Shown here: piece after piece, positions 30,984 through 64,000 of the stretch
Numbering within the stretch: position 1 is the first letter of the stretch
How the letters are laid out: every line of letters begins with the position of its first letter
Source: Protonemura montana
Lineage: Eukaryota; Arthropoda; Insecta; Plecoptera; Nemouridae
Direction: 5' to 3'
Assembly: GCA_947568835.1 (NCBI GenBank)
Contig: OX387606.1
Location: 11,966,001-12,030,000 of the forward strand
DNA: 64,000 nt
Notes under the pieces: model-generated
What the model was told of the DNA's origin: nothing
Databases searched by the model: none
The model's input: only the letters and a program-made list of their open reading frames with translations
Translations under genes and position numbers: made by a program

Positions 30984-33347
30984 TGCACACACATTACTCA
31001 CTTCTCATTCAATTCCTTAACTCTTATATTATTATTATTAGGTAAATATGCACTTCACTGTGAATAAAACAAACGAAAAATTGGAAATAACCCGAATAAC
31101 CAACACTGAGGAAGTGACGGACCCTAACCTCTAAATTTCAACCGAAATTTAACACTGTTTATTAAGAAATTGCGAGCATATATGTACATGTTATGACAAC
31201 AGTAAGTTTCTTTAGTATTTGAAGTAATATACCAAATCCGAAAAAACAAGTTTCGCCGGACAAATATCTTATATTTGAGATTTTAAACACCCGTTTTGAT
31301 TTCTCGCGCTAATAATCTTATTTCCAGAAAATACGACGAACAGCCGACGTTCGGAAACCAAGGTCAATTCGTGACATTTGTATTTATCGACTCTGATTTT
31401 CATAAAGGCGTCAACTTTGAATTCGAAATGCTGAAATTTTAGTTTGCCTCAATGTGGAACCGGAATTAACTAATTATTAATTGGAAATCAAATTCAAGAA
31501 AGAGTCGAGCATTTGATAAAAAAAGTTTATTTGGTAACAGTCAACCTTCAATTTCATTTTAAAGCCAATAAATAATGTTTCAATTACGTTATGTTCCCTT
31601 CGACCACCAAACTCCCACTCGGTGTGTAAGACCCTAAAGTCAATACATTGAAAGCAATTACTTCATAAACAATACAAAACTTAGCAAAATAAGCACTTGT
31701 TAGTATATTTTAAGGCTTATTTACTAGATAATGTAAGGGGGCACATTTACACATACATTGAGAATCCTCCCTGATTCCATAAAAACATGGGGAAGCTTTT
31801 CAACAACACATTTGGTTTTCTCTGCAGCTTGCAGAAGCTTAAACATATGTTTGGAAGTGTAAACGAAATTTGACACGAAATATAATCGGCAAATGAGATG
31901 GAAGAAAGAACCAGAATCAGTTTCAATTGAGCTTTGATGGATTTGGTCTCCTAAGATTGAACTACCATGTTTTGATATGACGGTACATAATATTTTGTTT
32001 GCTAATATTGTTGAAACATGCAATTCTATAAACATTTTTGGAATGTTTGGAACATTTAACAGTAACGGAGTTTATTACATTGACTTTGTTCAATCGTGAG
32101 AACAGAATATTTGGTTCAATTGTTATTTTACTATGTGTTTAGGTATTGATTTTCTTTCGATAGTTTTACATCATGAAGAAGAATAAGCGTATACAATCGG
32201 ATGAACCACTGACGGAAATCCTAGATTTCACTTCATAATCCATCACAACAGTGATTAGTCTTTGGGTCGTTATTTATTAATAATATAATTTGATTTTTTT
32301 CAATCGTTTATGTCCTGTCTTTTAATGTAACAGATTTTCAAGATGTTGCCAATATATATAATTTACACAGAGGCAATGACAAATAAGACCAACATCGTAA
32401 ATTCGTTAGCATACCATCGGTGTACAACAGAAACAAGATAAACCTACAAAATAAAAACGCTCTGGCACAAAAAGAAAATACAGTTAATCAACCTCTGTTC
32501 CGCTCCACTGTGTCGTGTCAGTGTTACGAGCAAACACTTGTCAAGATTTCACAATTTCCCTACTATCACTCTGAACCAGTTGGTTACCTAATCAACCTAA
32601 ACAAACTTAAGGACATACAAAATATAACTTTTCTTAAGATTACCATCTAGAAAACAAGCGTCATCATCGCAATGAAAATACTCTGGAGGGCTGGATGGGC
32701 GGTAGTCGAGCCGAGACCGTCCGCTTCATGGCAGACCATGATCTACCAGTTCCGCGAACTGAACCACCTCGACTGGACTGTTACCCCCTGTCAAACAGAG
32801 GGATCAAATAAGCTGCCAGCAAAGCAACAAAAAGCAGGCAATATACCAGGTTTTGTAAATGTGCAAGGTGGGCATTGCTGCTATAGTTAATACCTTTATT
32901 TAGGTGTAAAAGAACAAGATCATAAATGGGAGAAAAGCAAAGAAGGAATATAATGTTCCAAAGTTGAAAAAGCTGGTTGCAATAGTAGCAGAAACTTGAA
33001 CAACGTTTAGAATATTTTTATTTAATTTTAATTTAGTATTTCAAATCCTTCTACAACCAACTTGTGAGCATGTCTCTGTACCAGAATGCAGAAGCTGTGT
33101 GTCATGTTTGAAGAGCATGTTTGAAAATCAAGGACCAACACTATTTAAGGTCAGCCTCAACTGTCTATTGCTTACATTTAAAAATTGCCTCTTTAAAAAT
33201 TTATTTTTAACCAAATGGTTTTTAGCTTTGTCTCTTTTGAGCTCTGTGAGAATGTTAATTCTGAATCTAAAGACATCACTTTCAGTTGGCTATAAATGGA
33301 CCTCTAATTATTTTCCCAACGAGAATTTATACCTTTCCGTTGCCCAG
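30984..33347 (-). other. Intergenic region between PDE7-like and ANKRD genes; ANKRD 5' region
   Basis: The PDE7 stop and the ANKRD start are 2.4 kb apart on the same strand. The ANKRD promoter and any 5' UTR exon should lie here. It is AT-rich, not CpG-rich, with no obvious TATA or initiator assigned. Confidence 0.5.
33200..33205 (-). terminator. Candidate polyadenylation signal of the PDE7-like gene
   Basis: AATAAA on the minus strand, 143 bases after the PDE7 stop codon, the nearest canonical hexamer downstream. Confidence 0.5.
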
Positions 33348-33724
33348 CTAATTATCAAACAGTCTTTGTGATGCACCTGACAGAGTAGTCGGCAGCGATC
33401 CCCGTCTTCGTGCGAGTACTGGATCTTTCTGCCGACGAGCCCACCGTTGCCACGCTGACGCCTCGGCACCGACGTCGGCAAACATTTCAGGGCCACCTGA
33501 CTTCCTGCGCCGAAGCTCTCGCTTCTTGCGTGACCGCGACTTGGCGCCGTTGTCTGATGGCCAACGAACGTCCAGGCGCGAAGGGTCCACGCCAAAGTCA
33601 AGGGGAACTGATAGGCGACGAGGGTATTGCTGGTTTAGGGACAGTGGGACGTTAGCATCTTCTGGGAAATTGTTGCCCGTGGAGTCAAGACGTTGGCGGA
33701 AAGATTCGCCGATTTCGCAGATGC
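33348..33724 (-). CDS. PDE7-like last coding exon: RRLSVP, RRKS and RRGSLP
   Basis: It encodes [32 protein letters not shown] (Ser 852), a basic run [13 protein letters not shown] (Ser 889), [15 protein letters not shown] (Ser 923) and the end QRLFDN before TAG at 33350-33348. Acceptor TTTCCAG. Confidence 0.85.
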
Positions 33725-36700
33725 CTGGAAAGAAATGAAAGAATGTTAGATTTTGTGTTGGTAGACATTCTTTGATAGTTTAGGTTTACCTAAAGAATGG
33801 TCATTTAGGCTACAGCATCACAGAAGTAATAACAAGAATCATGCGCCCAGTCTATAACTATTTCAGATATAACTATCAGCAGGCTGTTAAAATGTGAAAA
33901 GGGCTGTTTAATTTGAGATTGTAATATTTGCATGAATAAATGGATAGTTATGAAAAACATAAAATACTTTATTTAATTCTTCTAGCTACATTTCAAGTAT
34001 TATTTCCTCATATCATTCTCATTTCAGCATCAAATCCCAAAGAACACAGTTTCATTTTTACTACTTCAAAAAAATACAGAGCACTTTGAAAGAAACCTTT
34101 ATAAGATCAATTATTTGAAGTGGTTGAGTTGCCTAGAGATCACACAAATGTTTCACAAGAAAGATGATGGTTTTCACAATATCCACCTCGTCAAATCTCC
34201 ATTTCATAATGGCAACATCATTACCCAGTAGAGGTGGAGGGGGAAAAGAGAGTTGCAATAAATTAAGAACAATTTACCGTCCACCCTTTCATGCAAACGG
34301 CAGTACGCTCTTAGCTCAAAACTGAAAGCAGTCTTTCGAACGATATCTGGCTTGGCACCTATCTAGCATCAGTACATTCTTTTATTATATGATAATAGAT
34401 AGTAGATAGCAAAAAAAAGATATATTTCATTTGTAGCATCGATAGTTTTAGTACATCAATCATTTTTATGAATGAAGTAGGTACATAGCTTGAATACAGT
34501 CCAAAATATTGACATTCATGTACATATATTGAGTTAACACTGTTTACATAAGTCACATTGATGAATTAATTGTTGACACTTGATAGTGGCTTGGCATATA
34601 TGATATGATTACGTATGAACAACCAGAGAAAATTGTACACTACTAAACTACTTCTTAATTGCCTGGCAAGAAGAATTAGTTATGCCTGGAAGCTAAGAGA
34701 TGAGAAAGGATGTGAGCGCATTCGTCAAAATGAGAGTGACATCTAGCCGAGTAGTTTTAAAACAAACTTTGCGAGATGTGAAAAGGTAGCAAAGGTGGGT
34801 TTATTGTAATTGTGATGCAGAAGTTGGCAATGAGGTACCATTTGTTCTTTATATTGAACAGTAGCTTTATTTTCAGCTATTGTAATAATGAAGTGCAAAA
34901 CCCCGACTTAATCACAATTTCAACAAATTAAAACTAACGCTCCAAACAATTCCTAGTATCTGGAGCTTGCATGATTTTTTAAGAAAACGTAAGCAGAGTA
35001 TAAACGGACAAGGAGAAATAGAAGACATGTAATAAAAGCATATTATTTTTAAAATATGTTGCCTTTTACTTCAACCTGCCAATCAGCCCACCTCTGTGAA
35101 TCTGTTTCTTCCAAGCTCAGCAACCCCTTTGTGACCAAAGAGAATAGAACAAAGCAAGCATTTAGGAAGAAGATAAGTGATTACCTGTGGGGAGAGTGGA
35201 GGAAGGGTCAAGCAAAGTGATGGACGGCTGAGAAGTTCTTGGTAACGAAGCCATGCACTCACTATCTTGCAACAACTGGCTTTGTAAACCCCTCAGAACA
35301 CCTGCAGTTAGCAAAGAGCAAGCAATTAGTCACGCAAAAAGAACGAATGCCAAGCAATAAGCAGACAAACACAGCAGTAGGTTGTATGTAGGCATGAGGA
35401 TGTGATTAATAAAGTAAGTAGCTCGAAGATTATTCTCACTAGAGTGGATCCTTAGTTGGATGACTAGTAGCATGTCTTATTAAAACATGTTGAACACAGA
35501 AATCCAATGTCTGAAAGGACTGAATGGTTAATGGGAAGAAAAATTTAATGAGAGTGTAGGTATCTATGACGCACACAAAGCGCAAACAGCATTTTAAATT
35601 TAATTAGATGTGTAGGTAGGTAGGTATGGTATGAGGAAAATTTATGACAAGACGTGTATGTAAGCTGGTAAATGTACGTGCAGACTGAAGTGTGAATGAT
35701 TGCCTAGTGGTGAGATGAAATCTAATAAAACGGTACAATGCACGCTGATATTATGAGTGGTAGTATAAAATGTACAGCAGTTTGAGTTTTACAGTTCTTT
35801 CGTTGATAGCTGCCTTGGTTCGGCTGTGATAACCTTGGAAAAACACCAAAATGTTTACTATAAAAGGAAATTACTTATTAATTAATGTCATGATTTACGA
35901 GAAATGTGTGTTTTTGCAGAAGTTGTGTGACTCAGTATCAGTTTATATGTAACATTTAACAAGGAAAAAAGTGAAAGAAGGCATATGAGAAATTTAATTG
36001 AAGTAGGTAAATAGTACAGTATGAATAGAGGCATCGTACAAACTAGTTACACTGTTTCCACTTAGAACCATTATCACAAGAGTGTCTTATTTGCATCGGC
36101 AAAGATGCTGGCAATCAGGCCCTGAACTTGACCCACTCGGGGTGTGTATTGGCCGCTAACGTTTTAGAGTTAGAATGTGAGCATCTCCTACTTTGTCGAG
36201 TGACATCGGTGGGCACACTTCCCCGTCGAAGGAGTCGGTCACCGCCGCCACGCAGCGCAAGCAACCCTGTTCCGTCGTCCGCGAGACGGTGGGAAATTCC
36301 CACAGGTGCCGAACCGCGACGACGCGCCAAGCCCTGCAATACAAGTCACCATGTGCCACTGTTATGATTAAATGCTTAGAGATTTACAAGAATTGGGACC
36401 CAGCTAAAAGCATTTACCCACACCGTATGGATGCTACCAGCTCAGGTGCATATGTATTAATTTGTATAATTTTGTGGGATATTCACATCAAAAAGCATAG
36501 CTAGATTGGTAACTTATTTGAATGACACCTACCCAGATATCAACGATGGGTTTAGAGCCTTTATCAGTGCGGTGCATTTAAAACAAGAGGCCACGATCGC
36601 CCAAGCCGCATCACTATTTCCATCGTGAATAGAAGACCCAGGGACATAAATGAGTACCGCATTTGCGTAAATTAAAAGAACCAACTCCTAGATGCCAATA

Positions 36701-39700
36701 AAATTCACATAGCTAATTATTGTCAAGACTAAAACGGTTCCTTTTAAAAGGTTCTTACTTATTAAAACAATTTCTCCTACAATATAGCAAATCTTTTTTA
36801 AATAAGCTGCATTCAGTAGGTCATCCTCCTCGCCTTCCTTGCCTTGCACCTAACAGGAAAGCAGTGAGTGTACGGCACGGATGTGAAGAAGGCATTATTT
36901 CTTTGCTTCCTAACGTAGAATATAGAGTGACAGGGGATTCTTCTCTTGGACCTCACGAAAGCTGAATGTCTCTCATTTATAATGAGTCTATAATTCACAA
37001 TCTTTGTACATTTAGGATCAATTTTGAACTTGTCTTTATTTTGCCTCACTCAAGAATCAATCAGTCAATGCCTTTTTATTTTGTCTCAAAGGATCTGCTA
37101 TTCGAATCAGTGCAATGCTTACTATGATTAAACACCCTTTTTAGGAGCCGATTAAATCGTTAAATCTGGGCACTCAAACGGTATCAAGCTAAGTTAAACC
37201 ATTTCACCATTTCAAGTTGTAGGTTGGCATTCTGTGATTCTTGTGATTTCCGACGCAGGCAAACACCACATATGTTTATATAACCAATTTTGTATGCTGT
37301 TTTCAGCCACACGTCATGTTTCTAGGGAACCTAGTGCACTTGATTATAAAGAGGCAGGTTGGAGAAAGGGAAGGAAAGGGTTGAAATCCCATTCCTTCAG
37401 CAGCATGATTGCATAAATTATGCAAAGTTTACGTACTAGCAGCTTGTTTTTGGGAAAAAATTGCAGCTTTGAAAGCCAAGATTACTGTCAGGTACTTTCC
37501 ATATAACTTGGTGTTGATATTCATTATTCTTCCTCTGCTCACAGGCAAATGTTTTAGAAAACCCCACATAAAATTGGCTTTTTAACGTGTTAGGAACAAC
37601 AATTCTCCTAAGGATCCGTTATAAATTGATTATTAAATCACGTCTCCTAAACCACTACCATCACAGACTAGCAGCATTCTTTGAGATTAGGCACTGAAAT
37701 AGGATATTTCTCTATTTTTTCTATCTGTCTAGTTTATAAACAATTGTTGACAAAACAATGAGGGTAGCAAGCAAAATAAAGGTAGGGTATTGCTGCAAAC
37801 CCCAGAAACACGCCAAACCATTACCTTGGTAGAGGAAAAAAGATAAATAAAACAAGCAAACTTTGCAACCAGGTAGCTGGTGTGATGACGCTGTTCTAAG
37901 TTCCGTTTTGATATCATTATCATAAGAGGAGACAAGGCAGGGAAACATGTGCAAACAAACCTGGAGGTTGACTGTGTAAAATTATCAAAGAAGTTATAGT
38001 GCACACTCAACAGCATTATAACTGCCTTTTAACAGCCCTTTTATAATCCAATGACAACCACAGGGATAACCACAGTAGCTAGTTGTCGCACAACAACTTT
38101 TTGACAATTTTTACACAATTGCCCTCCAGGATGCGTACTTAAGAGAAGGAGCCTCTATTTATGGTTGGTTGCCTTACCAACTTAGCTTTCTAGGTAATAG
38201 GTCCCTAACTTTGGCAGGTGTAACTCCTAAGCAGAAGGGGCCGAGTGTTCTTGCATCTAGCAACATATTCTTTGACAATCCACCCAAAGTAACCCTAAAA
38301 TCTAGACTCACCTGTGGAGTAATCCGGCGAATGGACTTGTTTCCGGCGGCGTCCACCTCAACCTCGAATCGCGGATCCACATTCTCTTTCTCCCATCGCT
38401 GCTGCCCGCCTGAAGAGCTCTCAGAAATTTTGGCTACCTTGCTCCCCTTTTCACGCACGTTCTGCTCGCACTGTTCCCGCTTGCCGGGCACGCACTCGTC
38501 CGCTGTCAAAGTCCTGTTCGTGCTGTCGCGTATCGCAAACAGTCCATCTCTCACTCGATTCACGGCGTCCACGTCCACGCCTCTCCTGTGCTCCGGAGTT
38601 TGTTCCGACGCCTGCCGCGAGAGGCTGAACGAACACGACGACGACGAACGTGAGTCCAGCGCTTCCGAAATATCCGCGCCGGCGCTGGACATATACCGGT
38701 GGCGCATATACGATGGTGCCAGTGGGGGAAAAGTCTGCTGGCGCGTGAGCAGTCCTTTTGGCGTCGGCCCTGGGGAACCACCTTGGAGGACGGTGCTGAG
38801 GCGGCTGGCTTCCAGGCTGGTCGTGATCGAAGCAATGCTTGGCTCAGGGAGGAGGTTCTCTGCAGAGACAGGTCTCTCGCGCTGGCTGTTGGCCGACGAG
38901 TGGTGCGGTCCATTGCTGCTTGTCGAAGAGGGGATTGACGACGTGCTGATGCAGAGATGGTTGTCTTCTTCTTCCGAGATTGGGCCCGAGGGAAAGCGGC
39001 GGTGTCCCCGGTTCTCGCCGATTGCAAGGCTCTCGCGCCGGATTATCGTTCTGTGCGGGGAAACGAAAATACCCGTTTTATTTAGTGATCGGTAATTGTT
39101 GTATCTTCTACTTTTAGTTACATATGATGTGGGAGGTTATTTAAATTATGTATCTGGCTTTCCATCAGAAAATCTTTATCGTTTGCAACGTCTGTAACGA
39201 GACAAAATTGCCATTTACTTGATGTTGCAAATGGAAATGAAACCTACTCTGGTGGTTAAAAATGGCGATGGGATTTTTTTTTTCATTCTACGATTCCAAT
39301 TCTGGTTACAAATTTCAAAAGTAAAATCTGTTTCCAATTCCAACAATTCAAAAATATAAATTATGATTTAAATTTTCAATACCAAAAAAATATATATCGA
39401 TTCTTTGCAATATCTCATTTCAATTCCTAGAATACACTCAATAGTTCAATTAAGTAAGAGCTCGGATATAAAATGATTCCAAATTTTCAAATATCCCCTG
39501 AATTCTCAACTGGATGACCTAGGTTGGCCCAGGTCTTAGGCACATTCAAAATTAAACCAACGAATGCAAGCTAAAACGTAATCAACGGTTGTACCCACCT
39601 GGTGATTGCGGGTAGTTTAGGCAAGCTCAGTGGCACCGAATGTCTGCGGCCAACCCTCACAGTGCAGTCCACCTCGTCTATCTGCAACGACGGCCTGCGC

Positions 39701-42700
39701 ACACTTTCCGGCGATGCCTGCAGCAGCAGTTCCACGCTACGTGACGCATCGTCCACACACGCATCTTCCTCCGCCGAGCTGACATTGCCTTCCTCGATCA
39801 TCTCAGCGTCTGATATCTCAGTCTTGGTCTCTTCAGCGTTTTCTTGCACCACCATCGAGTCCCACTTCTCCTTGTTGCCTGCATGGTGCAAAACAGGTAC
39901 ACATTGGAGCGTAGCCTACAGGGAATCTTTAGCAAACTGGTCATGTCTTCATTGAAAAACATTCGGGGCAGTAACATATGCATTCAATAGGTATTTAGTT
40001 TGTTCAGTATCTGATTGGACAAGCAGAAATCAAAAAGACAATGATTGAAATAAAAGATCAACCTCTAATCAATATCTTGCAAATAAAAAGGAGTTTGTAT
40101 AGGTGCAAGAATACAGGGGCGGCTCGTGAGGGAGGGCTGCGGGGCGGCTGCCCTCCCTAGCATTTTCGACAGAATAAAAGTATAATTGTTATTATTATTA
40201 TAATTAGAAGTGTTATTACTATTTTTATTATTGTTCTACGCTTGTTCTGTGTTTTTAAATGGGTGCTACTTTCGAAATGCGAAAAAACGCGCTATTTGCG
40301 TCGCGCCGACAGCACGAGCTTCGATCCAGTAGGCGGTTGTCCGCTGCCTATAGAGCATGAACGACACCTCTTGCTCTCTTTGGGGCAGCGAGCGCTGCCG
40401 TCCTCCCTGCTCAGCTAGGAGTGCGTGGAAATGGCCTTGAACGTGTGTCGCCTGTCGTCGCTCGCAAGCCCAGCGAGGGCAGCAGAAAACCCGCCCTCGG
40501 CCAGTCTCGGCCAGCCTCGGCCAGCCGCCGGACTGAGCTAGCAGCGAGAGCGAGTGAGACAGAACGATGCATATTGCATACGATCGCACATATTTTCCAC
40601 GGCAATTAATAGTTTCAAAATAATAGTACTACCGTTTAGCCTGAATTTCTGTCCCACCTAGTTTCACATACTGCGTACGTTTTTGACCAATGAAAATTAA
40701 TCTAATGTGTGACTTGACAGCTAGAATTCAATGATAACTTTTTTTTTAAATATCACATGTTGGATTTTAATGTTACAATATTGAAATCATACTACAGTGT
40801 TCATTACTTATGGTGCTGGTGGTGAGGAGGGGGGGGGGGGGAGAAATTTTACTGCCGCCCCTCCAAGAAAAACAGTCACGAGCCGCCACTGCAAGAATAT
40901 GAATAACACATGAACTGTATTTATATGATACATAGATTGCATCTGTATCTGACACTTAGGCATTTCAATTCAATTCAATAATATATTTATTTCATTGTAC
41001 AATATACATAGATATAAGGTACACACTCCTTAGTTCAAGGTATAGTCTAAAATTTTATTATTTATTAGATAAAGTTTAGGCATATCAATATTAAGTACTC
41101 AAATATTTAGAGGACATAATGTTCCTCTTGTATTACTTCGTACCACCACTAGCACTCATAAAAAATTAAGAATTTACATCACTCTTCCAATAACTAGATA
41201 ATGCCTAGATAAGAGCCTACAGTTGTCCTTTTAAAACAAACTTCTGCCATTTAATTATCAGGACTCAAAATTTTGGTGATGTATTGTACTTATTTAAATC
41301 GCTGAGGTTAGCATTAATTTGGATTTATTGAGTGTAAACCAGTCTCTAATGCAAGTTCTAAGTAAGTATCTAAGACTCTTGAGACTGAACTTTCAGCCTA
41401 ATGGTCATACCTTGCAAGTGTCCCATCATGCTAGTGGAGAGCGTCGTGTCTAGGAATCTATGCCATTCCTGGAACAGCGGTGCCACAACGAAACGGAAGA
41501 ACCCGGCCTGGATCTTTGATATCGAGGTCGATTGGCGATCGCACATTGACGTTACGGGCAGGCTTAGCTGCCGCTCGTAGTCACCTTGCCGGAAGAACTC
41601 TTCACAAACCTGCAGAGGTCAACCGAAGACTTAATGAGTTACTGTGATATGTCACTGGAAAAGAAGCTGACATCTAGTAAGAGTTCAAATCTCCGTATGG
41701 GAATCAAGAAATGAGGGCAAAACGCCAATTTAATAACAAAAAGTGATTTTATGGGCTACTAGTTTCTACTCTTCCGGTAAGTTGGCGCTCCATCCTCCAT
41801 TTGTACTTCTTTTCATTTTGCCTTTTACTAAGCTGGCAAATGTGTTCTTCTCTGAGTTGAAATAGGTAAACGCTTTAGAAGTCAGGAAAGAAAGATGTAG
41901 TTTGCTTAAAGTTTAAACTAGCTCAGAGACAAAAAGACTTCAAGCTCGAGTAAAATTACAATATTTTTTTTGTTCCCAAGAACTACTGCCAAGTGTGCAC
42001 TTCAGACCAGAGCATTTACTTTTTGGTCGCAGATAAGAAAGACTAAAGCAAAGAAGCAACACCATCCCTATTTAGCATAACAAATCTCAGGCTAACGACG
42101 AGATAAGTAGATTAGGATATGTAAGGAGAGAATAATTTCTATGCTAGTTTTTACCTTTTGACTCCATTTTCTGCTGATATCCCACGGTCTACACGGGTTG
42201 GAAATATCAGCGCACTTGAGCGCTATTTGTAAAATAAAGTGCCTGTATTCAGCACTCTTCATGTCCAGTAAGTCTTGGTCCATATAACGCTAAAAAAACA
42301 AGAAGAACCAATTTTGCATCATTTATGCAGGATACGATCACAAATTTATTGGCACGAGAGCTGAAAAAGATTTCAGTGCCTACCTTAAACCTGGTTAGGA
42401 ACTCTTGCTGCCGCGTTATGTCCGTGGCAAGAATGAGAGAGCTAATTTGCGTCGAGAGTTCTGCACAGCTCGAGCCTAGCTGCTCGGCCATGTTGCTCTC
42501 GATGAGGCAACCCATTGCTGACCGCCAGTGGTGGTTCTCCAACACCGAAGTATTCTGCAAGTTGCAAAAGATACATCAAGAAACTGTTTAATGAAAAAAA
42601 AACTAGATGCAAAAATCGTATGCTCATTTCAGATTTTTTCTAAGCATGCAAAAATGCAAAGTATTTAAATACGACTGTTACGAGTAAGTTTGTGTTTATG

Positions 42701-45700
42701 TCACAATGGCATACCCATTTTCATGGAACCAACAAAAAGCTGTGGTCGGTTTTATATTCCTTTTAAAGATTCACGACACATTTTTAATTGGTTTGCCCTG
42801 ACAAAATTTTAAAGGTTTTTGCAGAATATGACACTGAAATAATAATACCATAAAAAGCAATCTCATGCTCTCAGCTGCACTTTACTACCTCTAGTAGAAG
42901 GTACAATAGCCAATGTTTATGTTGGCTGAAAGAGACCAAGCAGCATAAATTAGCACCTACCTCATAGAGGGCCGCGAGATGATTGGAGGTGGCGATTAGG
43001 AAGGGCTGATTAACCCCGGGGTGGTCAAGGTCATGAGTGACGGCAGCCACAAGAGAAGACATGATTTCTAACGGGGTCAAGTGCTGGCGAATCTGCAAGC
43101 AATGAGGACACATGTTACCATCAACCGCTCGTCGTTTGTCTTGTCCAGACGATAAATGACCGATTTTTTTGGCTACCTTATCTTCTTGAAGGAAGCAATG
43201 CATAGCTTGAGTTACATCTGTGGCATGGATTGCATTGTGATAAGGATTGGTACTGTGGTATCCTTCTTCTATTAGCGCTGTAACGGTTCAAAACAAATTA
43301 ACATCGATCATCTGGCAAAAGCCATCGCAGTAAATTATATTTTTAACGGCTGATAACAAATAGGCTGATACAGTAATCAGTAAATTCTATGTTTTTCTAC
43401 TGTAATTGCAGCTCAACAATTGGGCAAATAGAGAATTAGCAAGGCATGAAAAAAAAAATTGTTTGTTTTGCAACGCACCAGGGAAACTCGTTGCTAAGAG
43501 CTTCCCGCCAAAATACTAGCTGGTTTATCACAGGTAATGGTGTTATATTATCACTCTTAGCTTATCAGTTCGCAAGTACTACTTGAAATTGACATCTGGC
43601 GCAGTTAGGGATGAAGAGTATGTGGGGTGGGGGTATTGAATACCGGGAAAGCTGACATGGTCAATAAAAAATATTTACTGAAATTAGCCAATCACTGAAT
43701 AGCTAAAGTAAATTTACGACAAAATGTGAGTTGCACAATAGACTTGAATGTATAGTAGGTAGCAGCTATTCAAGGGAAGCGAGAAAATCTCATTTTTCAC
43801 TGGGATTGGCCAATTATGGAACATTTGAGACATTTTCCCAATGGAAGAAGTTACAACAAAGGGCAACGCGTGGGATTAGAATCAAGAAAGACTTCGAGTT
43901 TGCTTGAAATTCGGTCCGGTAATTTGTCGCACATAAAAGAAGCGTCATATTTTCTTACAAGCTCCCTAATAAAAGGCTTGCTAGGTACTTACTAAACAAT
44001 TTCCACACTCGGACTACCTCCAAGTGGAAATGGTCCAAAAGGCCATACCAGTGGAACAAATGAACACAGAGAACTGGCAGTGATCGCCCTGAAAGATAAT
44101 CATATCATATTAATTAATTAACCAATTAATTGGTGTCATGCGCATACTATATCAATAATTAGGTCCCGTACTTGTTATTTTCTGTTTGGGAGTTGCTACA
44201 CTCCAGGTTAATCTTTTGAAGTTTGGATCAATCTTGCTCTAGCGAGGTATGCAACTGTAGCACACATGCATAGTTTTGTAAGTAAGGAAGAGAGGCTACG
44301 CTATGAACTTGCATAATGTCACGGTATGTACTTTCAATACCAATTCAAATTAATTTCAAAGCTTCAAACATTTCACATAAGCTAGGATTCATCTATTTAT
44401 AGGTCACTTCATTCAATTTATCGCTCGTCCCTTTTAAATGAAAATAAAATGTAGGTACGCATGAAATCAGAGAACTGAAGCCGATGAAACCCATATCCAC
44501 AATCAATTGACAATATGAAAATATCCTCTCTAAGGAACAAAAACAAAATAAAAACATAAAAAGTCACTCTGCTCTCTGCTTTTATTCCACCATTGGGGGA
44601 AACCGAATTGACAGCGATTATCTTTCAAACAGGAGACTTTTAGAACCAGGAATTCTTTCGGGGACTCATTTTGCTGCAATCCCTGAATCGACCACCAAAT
44701 TAGCAATGCCGTGCGCCGCAACCGCCAAGCAATCAACTCAACATAAGACTTTCATGAAATTACTTCCTCCTCATTGCACAATCTTACTATAATTTCCAAT
44801 ATCCTTTCCATTATTGAAAGATGAAGCCGCCTGCAGAATTATCTAAATTTCCAGTCTCACAGATTCAATATTCAAATGATATATTTCTCCTGATCTCCAC
44901 CCCTAAAGTATCCTACTCCGAGCAATTGCGTGGGCCTACCACTAATTAGCAAGATTCCAGTAGAACAAAGTAACACAATAAACGAAAGTGTTAACCTCAC
45001 TACTATATCTCGATAGTGCAGCGAAGAATCTTCAGGGTAATACAAACAGTCGTTTAATTAGGGTTTCCTCTCAAGTACCTCTTAAATAATCCGTCTGATG
45101 GTCTCTTAAAACAACGTAATCTTGACCGAGACACGGTGATGCCTTGTATGTACACACGACCTGGGTCATGAAAGGGTTGAAGGTGGTTTGGGGTCAGCTG
45201 CTAGGAAGGGTCAACCTTTGTGCTAGACTTACCCCCTGTCACGTTGTCCAGCGCAAAGGCATTGAACGGCCACTCCGACACCTTGCTCAGTAAACACTGA
45301 AAGCAACCAGATCATAATATGAGCTCATTTGGAAACGCTTATAGCCATGGTTTGCTTATAGATATGGCGCTAGGAGCGTCGCCCACAGTCAAGACCCAAC
45401 AGAGGGTTGAAGTTCTTGAAATCTGATTCGGGGTTAAGTTCAATGATTTCAAATATATATATGTATATCAAAATATGTCGTATTGGTAAATAATTGTGAT
45501 CAAATAATTGTTAGTATGTTTCAAAATAAACAAACTATGTGGCGACCTATGAGAAAGGCATAAAATTAATTTTAATACAAAATTTGAAGATTTAAGTCAA
45601 AATTTCAAAAGTAAATATCATAGATCCTAATTTCGTAAGATACCGCCAGGGCGAAAACACTTACTTGCACTTGTCCGTGATGAATATCGTCCAAGAGGCC

Positions 45701-48700
45701 CGGCTCTTGAGCTAGTGAGCGTGTCGTCAGCCGCTTCCGCCTCCGCTTGTGCATCGTGAGGAACCTTCCGGTGTGCAGAGGCCGTTGATACCGCGTGTCC
45801 AGCGTCTCCAGTAGGAGCCAGTCAGCTTCGGAGAACTGGCGCGACCGCGTGGGGGCGCCCACGGGTCCTGAAACGAATAAAAGAGGGTCGAGAGTTTAGA
45901 CTTGCTGCTTTGATTCATTTGACATCATGGGACTGCAGTCCAAATACGTCGGTGAATCTTAGGCTGAAGATAAGGATGAACCTGATCTACTCTAGAAGCG
46001 AGGAGGGAAACCTCGGTACCGGCATTCAGTTTATAATCCACTTCGAAGCACACCAAGGGGCCACTGGTTCAATGTCTCGTCCGAAGGATGGGATAAGTCG
46101 AAAAGCTGGTTTCCTTCACTAAATTCATGCTGGTAAGGAGAGCAAGGAGCAAGGAGTGAAGCTCTTGTATGAACTTCAAACCCTCCCACATACAACGAGC
46201 TACGACCCAATCTTTGTCGATAAGACTGAACAATTTCCTAATGGTGGTACCTCACGAAATTCACCCGAAGGTTGAGGGAGATGCTGTTACTCTCTAAACA
46301 CTCTAAATACGTTAACTCTAACGTTAATCCAAATTTCTCAAAGATCATGTTTCAGAACAGGCAGTGTGTAGAGTTTGCGGGTACCCGTTCAACACGTAAT
46401 CCAGTCAGTTTTACTTAACGCCACGACGCGCGGACGTCGTGGTCAACCGACGCGCCAAATGCGTCGCCAAATTCGTCACGCGAACCAAATTCCTCGCACG
46501 TCCGAACGGTGTCATTGTGTATTTGGGTTGGCCGCTCCCTGCGCGTCGAGAATGAGATCCTCTCAGCTTGTCAAGATTATGTCGTGGGACGTGGGGAAAA
46601 GTAGACGAAGACATTTTGTGCTGCTTTACTTTAGCTACAGCTTTACGACTATCCGTTCGGAAATTGTCTGGCATTGCGATCCTTTCTCTAAATTCAAAAA
46701 GAATTCGAAAGGGCAATAATGTAACACCAATTCAAAGATGTGTTCTCGAATCGAGTTTATCCTCGAAAGCATATACAATCCTTTTAAGAGTACCTAGATT
46801 CTCAGTTTAAATCAACCAGTCTAATTATCATCCATATCCAAAACTGACGTCAAGTGGTCACAGCCGAAGGGCCTAATACTAAGCGACTAACAGCGTAAAG
46901 TAGTAGGTAGTAGTAATCGTTAATTTCCGATCCGCGAGTGCTACTTTAGTGGGAAAGACGTTAAGATAAAACATCATAAAGATGAGCCATCAAAGACAGC
47001 TTCATCCTTCAGTCTACTTATAAGAAACCTGACTGTACTTTATATAGACAATTCAGGGTGGAGTCAGCAAAGATAGAGGAGAAAGAAAATAATAACGTTT
47101 ATGTAAAAAGGCAATTATGTGTCTCGATCCGTAGAAGGCGATCGAAGGGGTAGGTCAACCATCTTAAAGACGGGCCTATTAAAAGCCGTTCGGCATTCAA
47201 TAAGGTGAGCTGACGAGGTTGGAAGATCGCTCGCGCCCGTAGGCTGGAGAGTATACGACCAGGCATGATACATCGCGAGTGCAGCTTCCTAAAATGGACC
47301 ACAGACCTGGTTATGCCCTCACAAGGATTCTGCCGATACATTGTCTTCCATGCATAATCATACCGTGTGTACATGCTTGTTATTAGAACCATTTTTTACC
47401 ACGAGTGTGATGTAAGATTCCCGCATGGGTGGTACCGTTGAACCCACCTTTTCATATAAATCTAATTGTAAGATATTTTTTATTTATTTTAGATCCGATA
47501 AAGTTCTATTAAGGCTTCGTATGCCCCAACGTTTCGTTTTTGGAGATATACTCTCGGTCGTTTCGGAAATAAGTGGAAGCCATAATATTGAGTAAGGACT
47601 TCTTTAGGGAGCGCCGAAGGTTCGGGCGAGTGACCGATTCAAGGTGTTGGGTTTCCAAGAAAATGCTGTGATATTTTCTGCGAAATTACTCGGCCTAAAA
47701 TCGCTGCTCGAGTTTACCATATTTGCAATTCAAGCGCCTTACGGACAAAAAAAATGTTGGCACTGTGACTCATCAAGACCTTAAAAAGCCAGTAAACATC
47801 AAAAAGACTTTCCAGCAAAGGGTTTGTTGGCTTACGCTGCAAGCATAGACACACAATGATCCCCTAGCCTCCAGACGAAGTTAAAAAAATGGACGATATC
47901 ACAATTCCCAGCTCAGAGAGCTAATGAAGACAGTATTTTCTTGGCTAGATATGGATGTTTCAACCTCTTCGGCTTGATTTGGTTTTCTCAACCAACCCCC
48001 AAGAACTGTAAATGTTGTCGTTACATGCAACATAATTCAGTATGCACACTTTAATTTTGGGCTATTGTGGTTGGGTTATCCCTCTCTCTTTCTCCTACCC
48101 ACCCTTACTCGCACAAGGCAACAATTGCTACCCGTGAATAAGTAAACATGGGCCCTGAGTTCCACGCGAGTGTCGTCCAGACGCCATCGCAGTCAAACCA
48201 TCCTGCCCAGTCGATTGGCGTTTTAGTGACACTGACTGACGAGTTAACAGTCGGATTGGCGGGAGTGTTTGTTGTTTTCAATACGATTTGACATCTGTGC
48301 GTGGTTTCCAGCGGCCGGTGCCGGAGGTGCACTTGTTTTACAGGTGTAAACTGTGCAGTCACACGGGGCGTCGATAAAATTAAAACATTGGAATGTTCTG
48401 AATGCTGTAATACGTGTTAGCGAATATCAAGGGATACATTTTAATGATGTGCGTTGTCTCCTTGATATATTGTTTATTATTTTGTTATTTGTTATGGCCT
48501 TTGAATTGAATTTACTACATATAATGGGATTTTTTGTTCAATAAAACAATTTAGGATTTTTAACTATCGTCTTGATTTTCATGGTAAAGGTTCTCCAATT
48601 ATAGAAACCGGTAGTTGTCACTGTTGACTCCCTTTCTCTCTACCTACACGACTACACGATCTAACTACACGATTTGAGCTAGAATCAAGCCATCGTGTAA

Positions 48701-60700: not shown

Positions 60701-61991
60701 GTTTATTCAAATAATGAACGCCGCGGTCTAGACTAGGACGACAAAATGTGTTTATAACACAAGTAAAAATAGTGCTCTATTTATTTATTTCACCGCGGTT
60801 CGGTGCCACGCACGACTTCACTGTTTTACACCTGGCCACGATGGTAATTGTTTTTTGTTCCGCAAAAAAAAGAGAAGTACGTTACATATGGCCCCAAGCG
60901 AAATCGCTACGCATCTTGTCAAGTATGTTTCAATTTAATTGCAACGCGCAGTTTATTGGTTTAAATAATGTTGTAAACATGAAACCAAACAGCAAGCATG
61001 GCAATTGGCTTTTGGCTTTTGAAACGAAATGAAAATTCAATAATGATACGTGTGCAATTGGTCTGAAAAAAATGACACATATGTCTAGTGCGGGCGAACG
61101 TGGGTGACATCGAATTCGCATGAATGGTTCGGCGCATCGAGAAATATAAACGTCAAACGATTGATTCGTGGTGAAGTCAACCAGAAGCGAGATGAGCTAT
61201 CATTACACGTGCAAACGAGCACGTCCAGCTAACAGTTATAATTATTGAATTTTAATCGGAAATGATATAGCAATACCTGCAGCCGTGTGCCTAATCAAAT
61301 TTAGATGACAACGGAATACAACGGTGATGTTAACCGAGGGTTGTCTTTGTAGAATCGAGGAACGCCGTCTGACAAAAGTCGCCCAATTTTTTTTTTTTTT
61401 TTTTTGTAAAGTCAACCCTCTCTGACAAAAAGGTCAACTCTTTTACGTTCATTCTTTTACGTTCAGCAATTTCGCAAAGAGTTTCATAGATCAAAAATGA
61501 AAACTTTTTTTTTAAGCTGGATTAGTTTACCAGGGCTTAGCCGAGCTGTTTCTGTCTATTTATAAGCTTCAGCTGAGGTAATTAAACGAATGGCAAACTC
61601 GTGGAATAAAAACAATGTACAGAAGCGCACTTTCTTTAGAAATCCCCTACCCCCCTTCCCCTACATATATATACAACCAGTCATTACGACGATGGTAATC
61701 TATTGTCCATTTCTCCAGCCATTCATTCAGACCCAAAGCCAACTTCCAATTAACGATATAGAGTATACAAATTCGTCTGCAAAGTTCACCGGTTTTCAAT
61801 AATACCGTTTCGACATAATGGGAAATCAAACAATCGCTTGCCAGAGCACATAAATCGAACATCCAATTTAGCTATGCACTACCTGCCTAATTAATTATAG
61901 GTAATCAATTTATAGCAAAATCGTACTCACCCGCCATCCGAACGTAGACAACATTTGGATCAGATCTGTCGACTGAAATGGCACCCCGTCT
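33348..61991 (-). CDS. cAMP phosphodiesterase of the PDE7 family with a long serine-rich C-terminal tail
   Basis: Coding exons are 61991-61931, 45867-45665, 45296-45233, 44088-43993, 43277-43177, 43092-42961, 42554-42384, 42289-42155, 41609-41411, 39878-39599, 39050-38312, 36333-36192, 35301-35185 and 33724-33348, all phase-consistent: 938 residues plus an uncertain N-terminus. Catalytic HD domain (about 100-386): HNAIH at 155-159, [15 protein letters not shown] around 195, [17 protein letters not shown] (metal Asp 304) and IQAGFF with the invariant purine-binding Gln 355. Wording matches PDE7A/B far better than PDE4 or PDE8. PDE7 hydrolyses cAMP with high affinity and is rolipram-insensitive (knowledge). 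Human PDE7A is 482 residues; the extra length is a tail of about 550 residues with eight RRxS sites. The N-terminus keeps RRGAIS. The first intron is 16 kb. Confidence 0.94.
33725..35184 (-). other. PDE7-like intron, no exon seen
   Basis: AT-rich sequence with no conserved frame. Confidence 0.6.
35185..35301 (-). CDS. PDE7-like tail exon 4
   Basis: It encodes [20 protein letters not shown], then [19 protein letters not shown]. Phase 1 in and 1 out, with acceptor TGCAG and donor GTAATC. Support is splice sites and phase only, with no homology. Confidence 0.75.
36192..36333 (-). CDS. PDE7-like tail exon 3: RRGSAP and RRGSVP
   Basis: It encodes [20 protein letters not shown] and [15 protein letters not shown] (Ser 735 and 766). 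The acceptor TTGCAG is clear. The donor GTAGGA (36191-36186) is weak but gives the correct phase. If it is not used, the frame runs on to a TGA at 36117-36115, ending the protein near residue 799. Confidence 0.78.
36334..38311 (-). other. PDE7-like intron, no exon seen
   Basis: AT-rich sequence. No splice-bounded Ser/Arg-rich frame like the neighbouring tail exons was seen. Confidence 0.55.
38312..39050 (-). CDS. PDE7-like tail exon 2 (739 nt, Ser-rich)
   Basis: It is the longest coding exon of the gene. It starts [15 protein letters not shown] (RRES, Ser 488) and continues through low-complexity Ser/Thr/Pro sequence, [34 protein letters not shown], then [20 protein letters not shown] and RRITPQ. 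Acceptor CGCACAG, donor GTGAGT, phase 0. No folded domain recognised; probably disordered. Confidence 0.9.
39599..39878 (-). CDS. PDE7-like tail exon 1: acidic segment, then RRPS and RRHSVP
   Basis: It joins in frame to HLQG-NKEKWD. An acidic stretch ([16 protein letters not shown] and on) is followed by [12 protein letters not shown] (Ser 451) and [12 protein letters not shown] (Ser 468). The first is a PKA consensus; the second also fits a 14-3-3 motif, RxxSxP. Phase 2 at GTGGGT. Confidence 0.92.
40114..40891. mobile_element. hAT-type non-autonomous DNA transposon (MITE), 778 bp
   Basis: The left end CAGGGGCGGCTCGTGA and the reverse complement of the right end, CAGTGGCGGCTCGTGA, match at 15 of 16 bases. 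The element is flanked by a perfect 8-bp target-site duplication, CAAGAATA (40106-40113 and 40892-40899). CAG-type ends with 8-bp duplication define the hAT superfamily. No transposase frame is present. Inside are a GC-rich core with a threefold CTCGGCCAGC repeat (about 40496-40528) and a 13-base G run (40829-40841). It sits in a PDE7 intron between the catalytic and tail exons. Confidence 0.88.
40829..40841 (+). repeat. Poly(G) run, 13 bases, inside the hAT MITE
   Basis: Uninterrupted G preceded by GGTGAGGA, about 50 bases from the right end of the element. Confidence 0.9.
41411..41609 (-). CDS. PDE7-like exon, end of the catalytic domain
   Basis: It encodes [40 protein letters not shown] and [20 protein letters not shown]. 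Gln in KIQAGFF is the purine-binding glutamine. In human PDE7 the protein ends soon after this point; here four more coding exons follow. Confidence 0.96.
42155..42289 (-). CDS. PDE7-like exon, catalytic domain
   Basis: It encodes [20 protein letters not shown] and [25 protein letters not shown]. The Asp of KCADISNP is the fourth metal ligand. Length 135 nt, phase 0. Confidence 0.96.
42384..42554 (-). CDS. PDE7-like exon, catalytic domain
   Basis: It encodes [20 protein letters not shown] and [25 protein letters not shown] and ILATDI..Q are PDE signatures; the [13 protein letters not shown] wording is PDE7-specific. Confidence 0.96.
42961..43092 (-). CDS. PDE7-like exon with the HD metal motif
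   Basis: It encodes [20 protein letters not shown] and [20 protein letters not shown], ending LYE. HDLDHPG binds the two catalytic metals. Donor GTAGGT, phase 0. Confidence 0.96.
43177..43277 (-). CDS. PDE7-like exon with the HNxxH metal site
   Basis: It encodes [20 protein letters not shown] and [19 protein letters not shown] provides the catalytic proton-donor histidine and a metal-site histidine of class I PDEs. Phase 0 at GTAGCC. Confidence 0.95.
43993..44088 (-). CDS. PDE7-like 96-nt exon
   Basis: It encodes [20 protein letters not shown] and [11 protein letters not shown]. The HLF..GL..HFHL pattern is conserved in PDE7. Phase 1 at GTAAGT. Confidence 0.93.
45233..45296 (-). CDS. PDE7-like 64-nt exon
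   Basis: It encodes [20 protein letters not shown] and GG, matching [20 protein letters not shown] of PDE7A. Acceptor TTTCAG, donor GTAAGT, phase 1. Confidence 0.93.
45665..45867 (-). CDS. PDE7-like exon, N-terminal regulatory region
   Basis: It encodes [40 protein letters not shown], a basic run and [12 protein letters not shown]. The LLDDIHHGQ part aligns with the ILDDDYNGQ part of PDE7A. Phase 1 in, phase 0 out at GTAAGT. Confidence 0.88.
45928..46200 (-). repeat. Diverged headless copy of the 5S-derived SINE
   Basis: It shares with 50,900-51,180, in the same order: GTCGGTGAAT, GATGA, CTAGAAG.GAGGAGGG, AAACCT..T.CCGGCA, CACAA(G)GGG..CCAC.GG and GTC.CGTCCGAA-like blocks. It lacks the 5S rRNA-like head. 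It lies in the 16-kb PDE7 intron. Confidence 0.65.
48937..49004 (+). repeat. Collapsed tRNA-like sequence with a short tandem repeat
   Basis: CCCAGATAGCTCAGCTGGTA has a Pol III A box (TAGCTCAGCTGG) and is followed at once by a B box (GGTTCGTATCCC). The anticodon arm is missing. From 48966 ATCCCGT/ATCCCGGT is repeated about five times. It is probably a SINE relic rather than a working tRNA gene. Confidence 0.65.
50900..51295 (-). repeat. 5S rRNA-derived SINE (SINE3-type)
   Basis: On the minus strand the head (about 51290-51180) reads CACCAGTTCTGGTTAGATCA, CCGAAGTTAAGCAACACTG, then TATTGGATGGGTGAT. These are the 5S rRNA internal promoter boxes (GATCACCGAAGTTAAGCA and TTGGATGGGTGA). The unrelated body follows, and the element ends in a (TCA)n-type simple repeat near 50,935-50,960. 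Missing and altered 5S parts rule out a functional 5S gene. Confidence 0.82.
53516..53550 (+). other. Strong G-quadruplex motif
   Basis: GGGTGGGGGTT occurs twice in tandem, then GGGCGGGG. That provides more than four G-tracts of three or more with 1-2 base loops, a canonical intramolecular G4. It lies in the 16-kb PDE7 intron. Confidence 0.85.
54233..54257 (+). repeat. Poly(G) run, 25 bases
   Basis: Uninterrupted G in the PDE7 first intron, preceded by TTGGGA. Confidence 0.95.
55261..55407 (-). repeat. tRNA-derived SINE, full-length copy
   Basis: On the minus strand it starts GTCCAAGTAGCTCAATTGGT (A box). The B box is AGGTTCGATTCCCCG. The body GGCATCAATTTTTGAGAGGT and the 3' part with AATAAAATACCCCGCGCATT and the CAAGCGTTTGCAA hairpin match bases 1-107. 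It is not a functional tRNA gene, since the anticodon arm is irregular. Confidence 0.85.
55757..55893 (-). repeat. tRNA-derived SINE, second diverged copy
   Basis: Minus-strand A box GGAGCTTAATTGGTAAGAGC and B box GGGATTCGAGTCCCC. The body is more diverged than in the copy at 55261. It is in the same orientation, and about 40 bp on the 5' side (55892-55932) matches 55410-55450. Confidence 0.8.
56092..56126 (+). repeat. SINE body fragment in the opposite orientation
   Basis: TTTTTGAGAGGTCGTTAGTG then TTCCCAATAAT matches the SINE body at about 26 of 31 positions, on the plus strand, with no tRNA head. Confidence 0.6.
58031..58070. repeat. (AAT)n microsatellite within a small palindrome
   Basis: About nine AAT units are flanked by AATACAAT on the left and ATTGTATT on the right, so the tract sits in a hairpin-forming frame. 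Confidence 0.85.
60053..60069 (+). repeat. Poly(G) run, 17 bases
   Basis: Uninterrupted G in the PDE7 first intron, preceded by GAGGGGGATAT. Confidence 0.95.
61931..61991 (-). CDS. PDE7-like exon with RRGAIS motif
   Basis: It encodes [20 protein letters not shown] plus one base of glycine. Human PDE7A has RRGAIS followed by a YIRML-type strand at this point. Acceptor TTCCAG, donor GTGAGT. Without that match this 61-nt exon would be unrecognisable. Confidence 0.9.
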
Positions 61992-63178: not shown

Positions 63179-64000
63179 TACCACGAGGTAACAACAACAC
63201 CACAGAACACTTCTGCAAAGTGGAATTACGTCCAAAAAGAAATGTTAACTGTTCCTGTGGGCCATTTGATTAAGGTTTGTACATGTTTTAAAAGGCGATT
63301 TCTTGGGTTTTATTTATTTGTCTATTTATTAGAGAAAAACAGCTTTGAAAATAACAGCATTTGACTTTGATTAAGAGTAATAATTTGAAGAAAAAAATGT
63401 GAGAAGAATTACATACAATGTCTTTGCATTTTTTTCCATGGCACATTTGCCTGTTTGTAATGCAGCACATCGGCAAAACTAGCGTTACTCAGTTTATGTA
63501 TACCAATCTTTATAAAACTACAAATGTATGTCTTCCTCTTCTCGCCAGGCTGAACTGATTTCAGAATTCAACAATGATGTAAACATCTTGTAAGCGTTCG
63601 GTGATAAATATTTATATATTTTTAACTAAATTTATATTGAAAATAAACATGCAACTTGCGAGAAAAGATGCATAGTGACCATATCAGACGTTTCAGCGAA
63701 TTATTGCACCTTTCCGGCAACACCAGTTAAATGACCGTGCGATTGTGCGTGCTCTGCATAAGTGAATTTGTCACTAAGCAAATACTAATTACACAATTGC
63801 ACTAAAAAAAAACTTACATAATTGAGAGCATCAGCATTCAGCGACATAACTAAGCTAGGAGATCGTGATAATTATTAGTGTTAACAAAGCAGATGAGCAC
63901 AGAGCGTCGTCTGATGTGAGCAAAAATCACACGAGTCAAATCATAACTATGTAACAATGTGGGTGCGAGTGCGATCGGATCTTGCAGCGCCTTATGCGAT
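63179..64000 (-). other. Region upstream of the PDE7-like gene
   Basis: AT-rich sequence with no recognised exon or promoter element. The true transcription start may lie here or beyond the window. Confidence 0.4.

What the first reader, a model, noticed from the sequence alone, without database searches (positions are those of the whole stretch)
33348..39878. PDE7-type phosphodiesterase with a long tail carrying eight RRxS sites, five of them RRxSxP
The four-plus tail exons encode about 550 residues absent from mammalian PDE7. Ser 451, 468, 488, 735, 766, 852, 889 and 923 sit in RRxS (numbered from the exon at 61991). Five read RRHSVP, RRGSAP, RRGSVP, RRLSVP and RRGSLP, which satisfy both the PKA consensus (RRxS) and a 14-3-3 mode (RxxSxP). 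Recurrence in separate exons of an otherwise low-complexity tail suggests selection. A cAMP-degrading enzyme bearing its own multi-site PKA/14-3-3 switch would be a compact feedback module. Function is inference.
Basis: partly seen in the sequence, partly recalled or inferred. Interest (0 to 1): 0.8.

Follow-up and report, generated by a model that had tools for sequence, protein, structure and literature searches.

The report
PDE7 with PKA-site-rich C-terminal tail
An animal gene for an enzyme that destroys the messenger cAMP appears to carry a long tail studded with recognition sites for the very kinase that cAMP switches on, which may make it a built-in feedback device.

Summary
On the minus strand a PDE7-type catalytic domain (best PDB match human PDE7A, E 1.1e-97) runs across a GT-AG junction into an exon that continues PDE7A (GHLQGNKEKW against GHVGLNKASW), so the first tail exon is joined by homology. 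Three more exons follow in phase; the tail is 511 residues (reader: about 550) with eight RRxS, five of them RRxSxP. No shuffle reaches either count (0 of 20,000 residue shuffles, 0 of 5,000 dipeptide shuffles). Codons differ between sites, against a recent DNA duplication. Most likely this PDE7 docks PKA C at its N-terminus and is phosphorylated at many tail sites, some suited to 14-3-3. Transcripts, phosphorylation, 14-3-3 binding and conservation are untested: no animal relatives can be searched here. PDE3A already has PKA/PKC sites that recruit 14-3-3 (PMC12153654), so I call it a new variant of a known kind.

The parts
61931..61991 (-). Upstream PDE7 exon, [27 protein letters not shown] (61991-61974) resembles the PKA RI-type pseudosubstrate and the human PDE7A N-terminal repeat (both recalled)
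   Evidence: tblastn with a recalled human PDE7A, 14 of 23 identical, E 1.9e-4; acceptor CCAG and donor GGTGAGT seen; RRGAIS coordinates
45665..45895 (-). Probable exon ending [11 protein letters not shown]; upstream end not fixed (given as the open frame)
   Evidence: read by eye against human LDDDYNGQAK (recalled); donor CAA|GTAAGT and frame; no match there in tblastn
45233..45296 (-). Probable short exon [21 protein letters not shown]
   Evidence: read by eye against human [22 protein letters not shown] (recalled); splice signals and phase; no match there in tblastn
43993..44088 (-). Exon [32 protein letters not shown]
   Evidence: tblastn E 0.010; splice signals and phase
42961..43277 (-). 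PDE7 catalytic exon(s) with the HNxxH and HDLDHPG motifs; 43176-43093 is a candidate 84-base in-frame intron
42384..42554 (-). PDE7 catalytic exon
   Evidence: tblastn E 8.2e-28
42155..42289 (-). PDE7 catalytic exon
   Evidence: tblastn, same group
41411..41609 (-). last catalytic exon, ends MMGHLQ, donor AAG|GTATGA
   Evidence: tblastn E 3.4e-18
39599..39878 (-). tail exon A: NKEKW continuation of PDE7, RRPS and RRHSVP
   Evidence: alignment to 1zkl_A runs across the junction; GCAG acceptor, CAG|GTGGGT donor
38312..39050 (-). tail exon B: RRES, RRIT; Ser-rich
   Evidence: CACAG acceptor, CAG|GTGAGT donor, phase kept
36192..36333 (-). tail exon C: RRGSAP and RRGSVP
   Evidence: TTGCAG acceptor, AAA|GTAGGA donor (weak), phase kept
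33348..33724 (-). tail exon D: RRLSVP, RRKS, RRGSLP, stop TAG at 33350-33348
   Evidence: TTTCCAG acceptor, phase kept; first AATAAA downstream at 33205

Best explanation
This is a PDE7-type cAMP phosphodiesterase, the only one found in its genome, whose protein carries two links to PKA: an N-terminal RRGAIS pseudosubstrate, and a 511-residue C-terminal tail, probably disordered, with eight RRxS sites. Proposed working: when cAMP rises, free PKA C docks at the N-terminus and phosphorylates the tail; pairs of phosphorylated RRxSxP sites in the last two exons (31, 47 and 71 residues apart) can be bridged by a 14-3-3 dimer, which changes the activity, stability or place of the enzyme and so the speed at which cAMP falls. 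Shown: enzyme identity, splice signals in phase, site excess. Inferred: one transcript, disorder, phosphorylation, 14-3-3 binding and the effect on cAMP.
For: PDE7A is the best PDB relative by a wide margin (1.1e-97 against 5.6e-51 for the next chain that is not PDE7A). Homology crosses the first tail junction. All 11 junctions from 45665 to 33724 are GT-AG and give one open frame of 888 codons to the stop. RRxS and RRxSxP reached by 0 of 20,000 and 0 of 5,000 shuffles. Given 15 RR pairs, Ser stands at +3 in 8 and in at most 4 at any other offset from -8 to +11; given 8 sites, Pro stands at +2 in 5 and in at most 1 at any other offset from -8 to +8. The residue after Ser in the five RRxSxP sites is V, A, V, V or L, as PKA favours (recalled). 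Ser codons are a mix of TCN and AGY. PDE7A1 pseudosubstrates bind PKA C (PMC6143667, passages). PKA and PKC sites of PDE3A recruit 14-3-3 (PMC12153654, passages).
Against: No transcript, proteomic or orthologue evidence. Exons C and D are tied in only by splice consensus and motif. With GC-matched codon scores exon C is not resolved (model -0.132; another sense frame -0.136; one antisense frame better at -0.071), and for exon A two antisense frames score higher (0.274 and 0.131 against 0.103), although homology fixes its strand. RRxS is also met by other basophilic kinases. The motif was chosen after the sequence was read, which shuffles do not correct for. With A+B alone the excess is modest (RRxS 3, reached by 159 of 20,000 shuffles; RRxSxP 1, by 558 of 20,000); most of the signal lies in C+D. 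The RRGAIS exon lies 16 kb upstream, and the exon that should follow it was not found by motif search.
Confidence: 0.5

Rival explanations
1. The tail is a multi-site regulatory tail, but for another basophilic kinase (CaMK, PKD, Akt, PKC), so it couples cAMP breakdown to calcium or lipid signals rather than closing a PKA loop; 14-3-3 may still bind.
For: RxxS is shared by many kinases (recalled). In the PDE3A table, 4 of the 5 sites with 14-3-3 binding are listed under PKC.
Against: Double Arg at -3/-2 with a hydrophobic residue at +1 is the PKA optimum (recalled); the N-terminus carries a PKA-type pseudosubstrate.
Confidence: 0.2
2. The sites serve mainly as PKA C docking or decoy sites: with the RRGAIS arm the tail holds and buffers PKA C near the phosphodiesterase, as an R-subunit-like inhibitor, and 14-3-3 plays no part.
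For: PDE7A1 inhibits PKA C directly through its N-terminus (PMC6143667, passages); RRLSVP and RRHSVP resemble the RII inhibitor site (recalled).
Against: Tail sites have Ser, hence are substrates that would turn over; Pro at +2 in 5 of 8 is not needed for PKA binding (inference).
Confidence: 0.12
3. Exons B to D, or C and D, are not part of the main PDE7 transcript (alternative 3' ends or a separate gene), and the usual enzyme ends soon after the catalytic domain.
For: No RNA evidence; weak codon signal in C; weak donor AAA|GTAGGA; reading on past the donor at 41411 gives a short end, [13 protein letters not shown] and stop.
Against: Homology continues into exon A, which already has RRPS and RRHSVP; consensus donors at A and B; the same rare motif recurs in frame in C and D on the same strand.
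Confidence: 0.13
4. The motifs are a by-product of an Arg/Ser/Pro-rich tail and carry no function.
For: Tail is 13.3% Ser and 11.7% Arg; 15 RR pairs against a mean of 6.9 in residue shuffles.
Against: Shuffles that keep composition, and even dipeptides, never reach the counts; offsets +3 and +2 stand out.
Confidence: 0.05

Closest known systems
Human PDE7A1
   Same: Catalytic domain and the NKxxW continuation, and an RRGAIS-type N-terminal PKA pseudosubstrate (with recalled human letters; that PDE7A1 has two is stated in PMC6143667)
   Different: Human PDE7A ends within about 35 residues of that point (recalled); the tail with eight RRxS has no counterpart there. [quoted passage not shown]
PDE3A with 14-3-3
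   Same: cAMP-hydrolysing phosphodiesterase with several PKA/PKC serines whose phosphorylation binds 14-3-3 (PMC12153654, passages)
   Different: Different PDE family; sites lie before the catalytic domain (recalled), and 4 of the 5 with 14-3-3 binding are listed under PKC
PDE4 long forms
   Same: PKA phosphorylation speeds up cAMP breakdown as feedback (recalled)
   Different: A PKA site in UCR1, no multi-site tail (recalled)

Membership tests
PDE7 (class I cyclic nucleotide phosphodiesterase) | PDEase_I catalytic domain closest to PDE7A | tested here: met
   PF00233 over its cut-off; 1zkl_A E 1.1e-97 over 255 residues against 5.6e-51 for the next chain that is not PDE7A
PDE7 | HNxxH and HDxDHPGxxN metal-site motifs (recalled as defining) | tested here: met
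   [10 protein letters not shown] and [10 protein letters not shown], aligned with PDE7A
PDE7 | cAMP specificity | not testable with these tools
   needs an enzyme assay
PDE7A1-like PKA C binder | N-terminal RRGAI pseudosubstrate, two copies in human | tested here: inconclusive
   one copy in the window, 61991-61974; the window ends at 64000, so a second could lie beyond; joining of this exon to the catalytic exons not shown
PDE7A1-like PKA C binder | binds and inhibits PKA C | not testable with these tools
   bench work
PKA/14-3-3 regulated phosphodiesterase (PDE3A-like in working) | RRxSxP sites in excess | tested here: met
   5, reached by 0 of 20,000 and 0 of 5,000 shuffles
PKA/14-3-3 regulated phosphodiesterase (PDE3A-like in working) | phosphorylation and 14-3-3 binding | not testable with these tools
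   bench work
PKA/14-3-3 regulated phosphodiesterase (PDE3A-like in working) | sites kept among orthologues | not testable with these tools
   no other animal genomes are searchable here; the first 215 tail residues found no relative in genome contigs, the catalytic part none in viral contigs

The most novel reading that the evidence does not exclude
A phosphodiesterase that is itself a complete PKA feedback device: an R-subunit-like pseudosubstrate holds free PKA C at the N-terminus, and a multi-site C-terminal tail records how much kinase is active, turned into a graded or switch-like output by 14-3-3 dimers, with no AKAP or R subunit needed.
Probability: 0.25. Interest if true: 0.75.

Novelty: new variant of a known kind. 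Interest (0 to 1): 0.5.

Why it matters
Two reviews describe PDE7 as having no known regulatory domain (PMC13095499 for the N-terminal region; PMC12346295). If this tail is real and used, at least one animal PDE7 is regulated by multi-site phosphorylation and linked to PKA at both ends, a small system in which cAMP feedback could be measured in one protein.

Tried and rejected
Chance from composition: rejected by residue and dipeptide shuffles. Recent DNA duplication of one site: not supported, codons differ between sites. Another copy of tail exons B to D in the genome: none found, the three matches are the window's own exons (exon A was not in that query). A second PDE7 gene: none found; of 14 matches 5 are this gene's own exons and the other 9 are at most 45% identical over short stretches. 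A known domain in the tail: none in Pfam up to E 1 beyond PDEase_I in the catalytic exon, no PDB sequence match to the whole tail up to E 10; exon C alone gave two weak matches, E 0.51 and 1.2, taken as chance. The long antisense ORF over exon B (38079-39095, plus strand, 338 codons stop to stop): its codon score is slightly below the modelled frame (-0.001 against 0.019). Relatives: the first 215 tail residues in genome contigs (121 stretches matched a pattern, none confirmed) and the catalytic part in viral contigs (no stretch), as expected of prokaryote and virus collections.

Papers: seven searches (17, 278, 162, 337, 0, 0 and 4 papers held the terms, of which 15, 20, 12, 15, 0, 0 and 4 were listed). 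I saw the listings, and passages of PMC13095499, PMC6143667, PMC12346295, PMC12153654 and PMC7430754. Nothing that I saw describes a PDE7 with such a tail; the library is open-licence only and the lists were cut, so this is no proof of absence in print.

Own errors mended: a first codon-bias run chose the strand of two training loci wrongly and was replaced, which dropped 6 of 38 loci whose cores held stops. A first join was one base off at exon D; corrected. A first count of RRxSxP in other loci was replaced. The protein queries hold one extra Q at the junction 42961|42554, seen after the fact.
Full report
What is there. The window lies in an animal genome of 258 Mb in 34 contigs. A COX1 on the small contig C34 reads through under the invertebrate code and looks arthropod to me; that placement is recalled, no tool named the organism. 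On the minus strand, tblastn with a recalled human PDE7A finds exons from 61994 down to 41415 in the order of the protein: five places with E at or below 1.9e-4 and one at 0.010, among other matches of E 0.7 or more that I take as chance. The joined catalytic part matches human PDE7A structures at E 1.1e-97; the next chains are 6ezu at 5.6e-51 and PDE4D at 1.4e-48. No other place in the genome comes near it, and tail exons B to D occur once.

The tail is joined. The last catalytic exon ends at 41411 with AAG|GTATGA, and exon A begins at 39878 after GCAG. The phmmer alignment to 1zkl_A runs straight across this junction ([15 protein letters not shown] with MLGHVGLNKASWKGL), so exon A, with RRPS and RRHSVP, is tied to the enzyme by homology and not only by consensus. 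The further junctions are A|B CAG|GTGGGT, B|C CAG|GTGAGT and C|D AAA|GTAGGA, each in the right phase; the frame stays open to TAG at 33350-33348, with AATAAA at 33205. From 45895 down, twelve exons with 11 GT-AG junctions give one open frame of 888 codons and the stop (the upstream end of the first is not fixed). The tail is 511 residues after HLQG. Joins beyond A are less certain, C|D least so.

The sites are more than chance. Ser lies at tail residues 63, 80, 100, 347, 378, 425, 462 and 496, and Thr at 337. RRxS is 8 against a mean of 0.92 and RRxSxP 5 against 0.059 in 20,000 residue shuffles; with dipeptides kept, 1.59 and 0.11 in 5,000; no shuffle reaches either. Around the 15 RR pairs, Ser peaks at +3 (8) and Pro at +5 (6). 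The excess sits mostly in C+D (172 residues: 5 RRxS and 4 RRxSxP, 0 of 20,000 shuffles reach either), less in A+B (339 residues: 3 and 1, reached by 159 and 558 of 20,000). In six-frame ORFs elsewhere RRxSxP is seen 3 times in 90,739 residues (0 of 32,437, 3 of 58,302). The RRGS sites are coded CGT CGC GGT TCG, CGA CGG GGA AGT and AGA CGG GGA TCG; the mix of TCN and AGY serines argues against recent duplication and for keeping, or repeated gain, at the protein level. This is an argument, not a test of selection.

A second link to PKA, outside the interval given. The exon at 61991-61931 reads [21 protein letters not shown]. As I recall it, human PDE7A has [22 protein letters not shown] there, and RRGAIS is the PKA RI-alpha pseudosubstrate. 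A review states that the PDE7A1 N-terminus holds two PKA pseudosubstrate sequences, binds PKA C and blocks its substrate site (PMC6143667, passages); the primary work it cites (Han 2006) was not read. The gap from this exon to the next one found is about 16 kb, and the exon that should follow it was not found by motif search.

How it may work. Free PKA C docks at RRGAIS, phosphorylates the tail, and 14-3-3 dimers bridge pairs of RRxSxP sites; the spacings of 31, 47 and 71 residues in C and D should allow this (inference). The outcome for the enzyme (activity, stability, place) cannot be told from sequence. Other basophilic kinases remain possible.

What is known. PDE3A is regulated by PKA and PKC at several serines that recruit 14-3-3 (PMC12153654, passages). 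[quoted passage not shown] A schistosome SmPDE7var is called unusual in its phylogeny (PMC7430754, passages). The finding is therefore a new variant of a known kind; whether it is shared by a whole animal group could not be tested here.

Noticed in passing
window 43176-43093, minus strand: The 28-residue insert in the catalytic exon (KRR and CPHC inside) is an exact 84-base GT-AG segment, open in frame; without it this stretch aligns to human PDE7A without a gap. Probably a short intron that can be kept or removed without a frame shift.
   Followed up: partly
window 25822-7202, minus strand: Downstream ORFs with ankyrin repeats and long charged stretches, ANKRD11/12-like by eye.
   Followed up: no
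window 1688-793, minus strand: Kinesin motor exons; the gene continues beyond the window's start.
   Followed up: no
window 51295-51175, minus strand: 5S rRNA-like match of full model length, 45.4 bits, between the RRGAIS exon and the next PDE7 exon; may be a 5S-derived repeat.
   Followed up: no
G000 C4:5760925-5762262 and 5776811-5777755: COX1-like stretches in the large contig C4: one with the same score as the copy on contig C34, and a second, shorter one, so possibly a recent nuclear insertion of mitochondrial DNA or an assembly error.
   Followed up: no
window 36192-36120, minus strand: If exon C reads on past its donor, a further RRCS appears (QSRRCSHS) before a stop, so an intron-retaining form would end in another basophilic site.
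   Followed up: no
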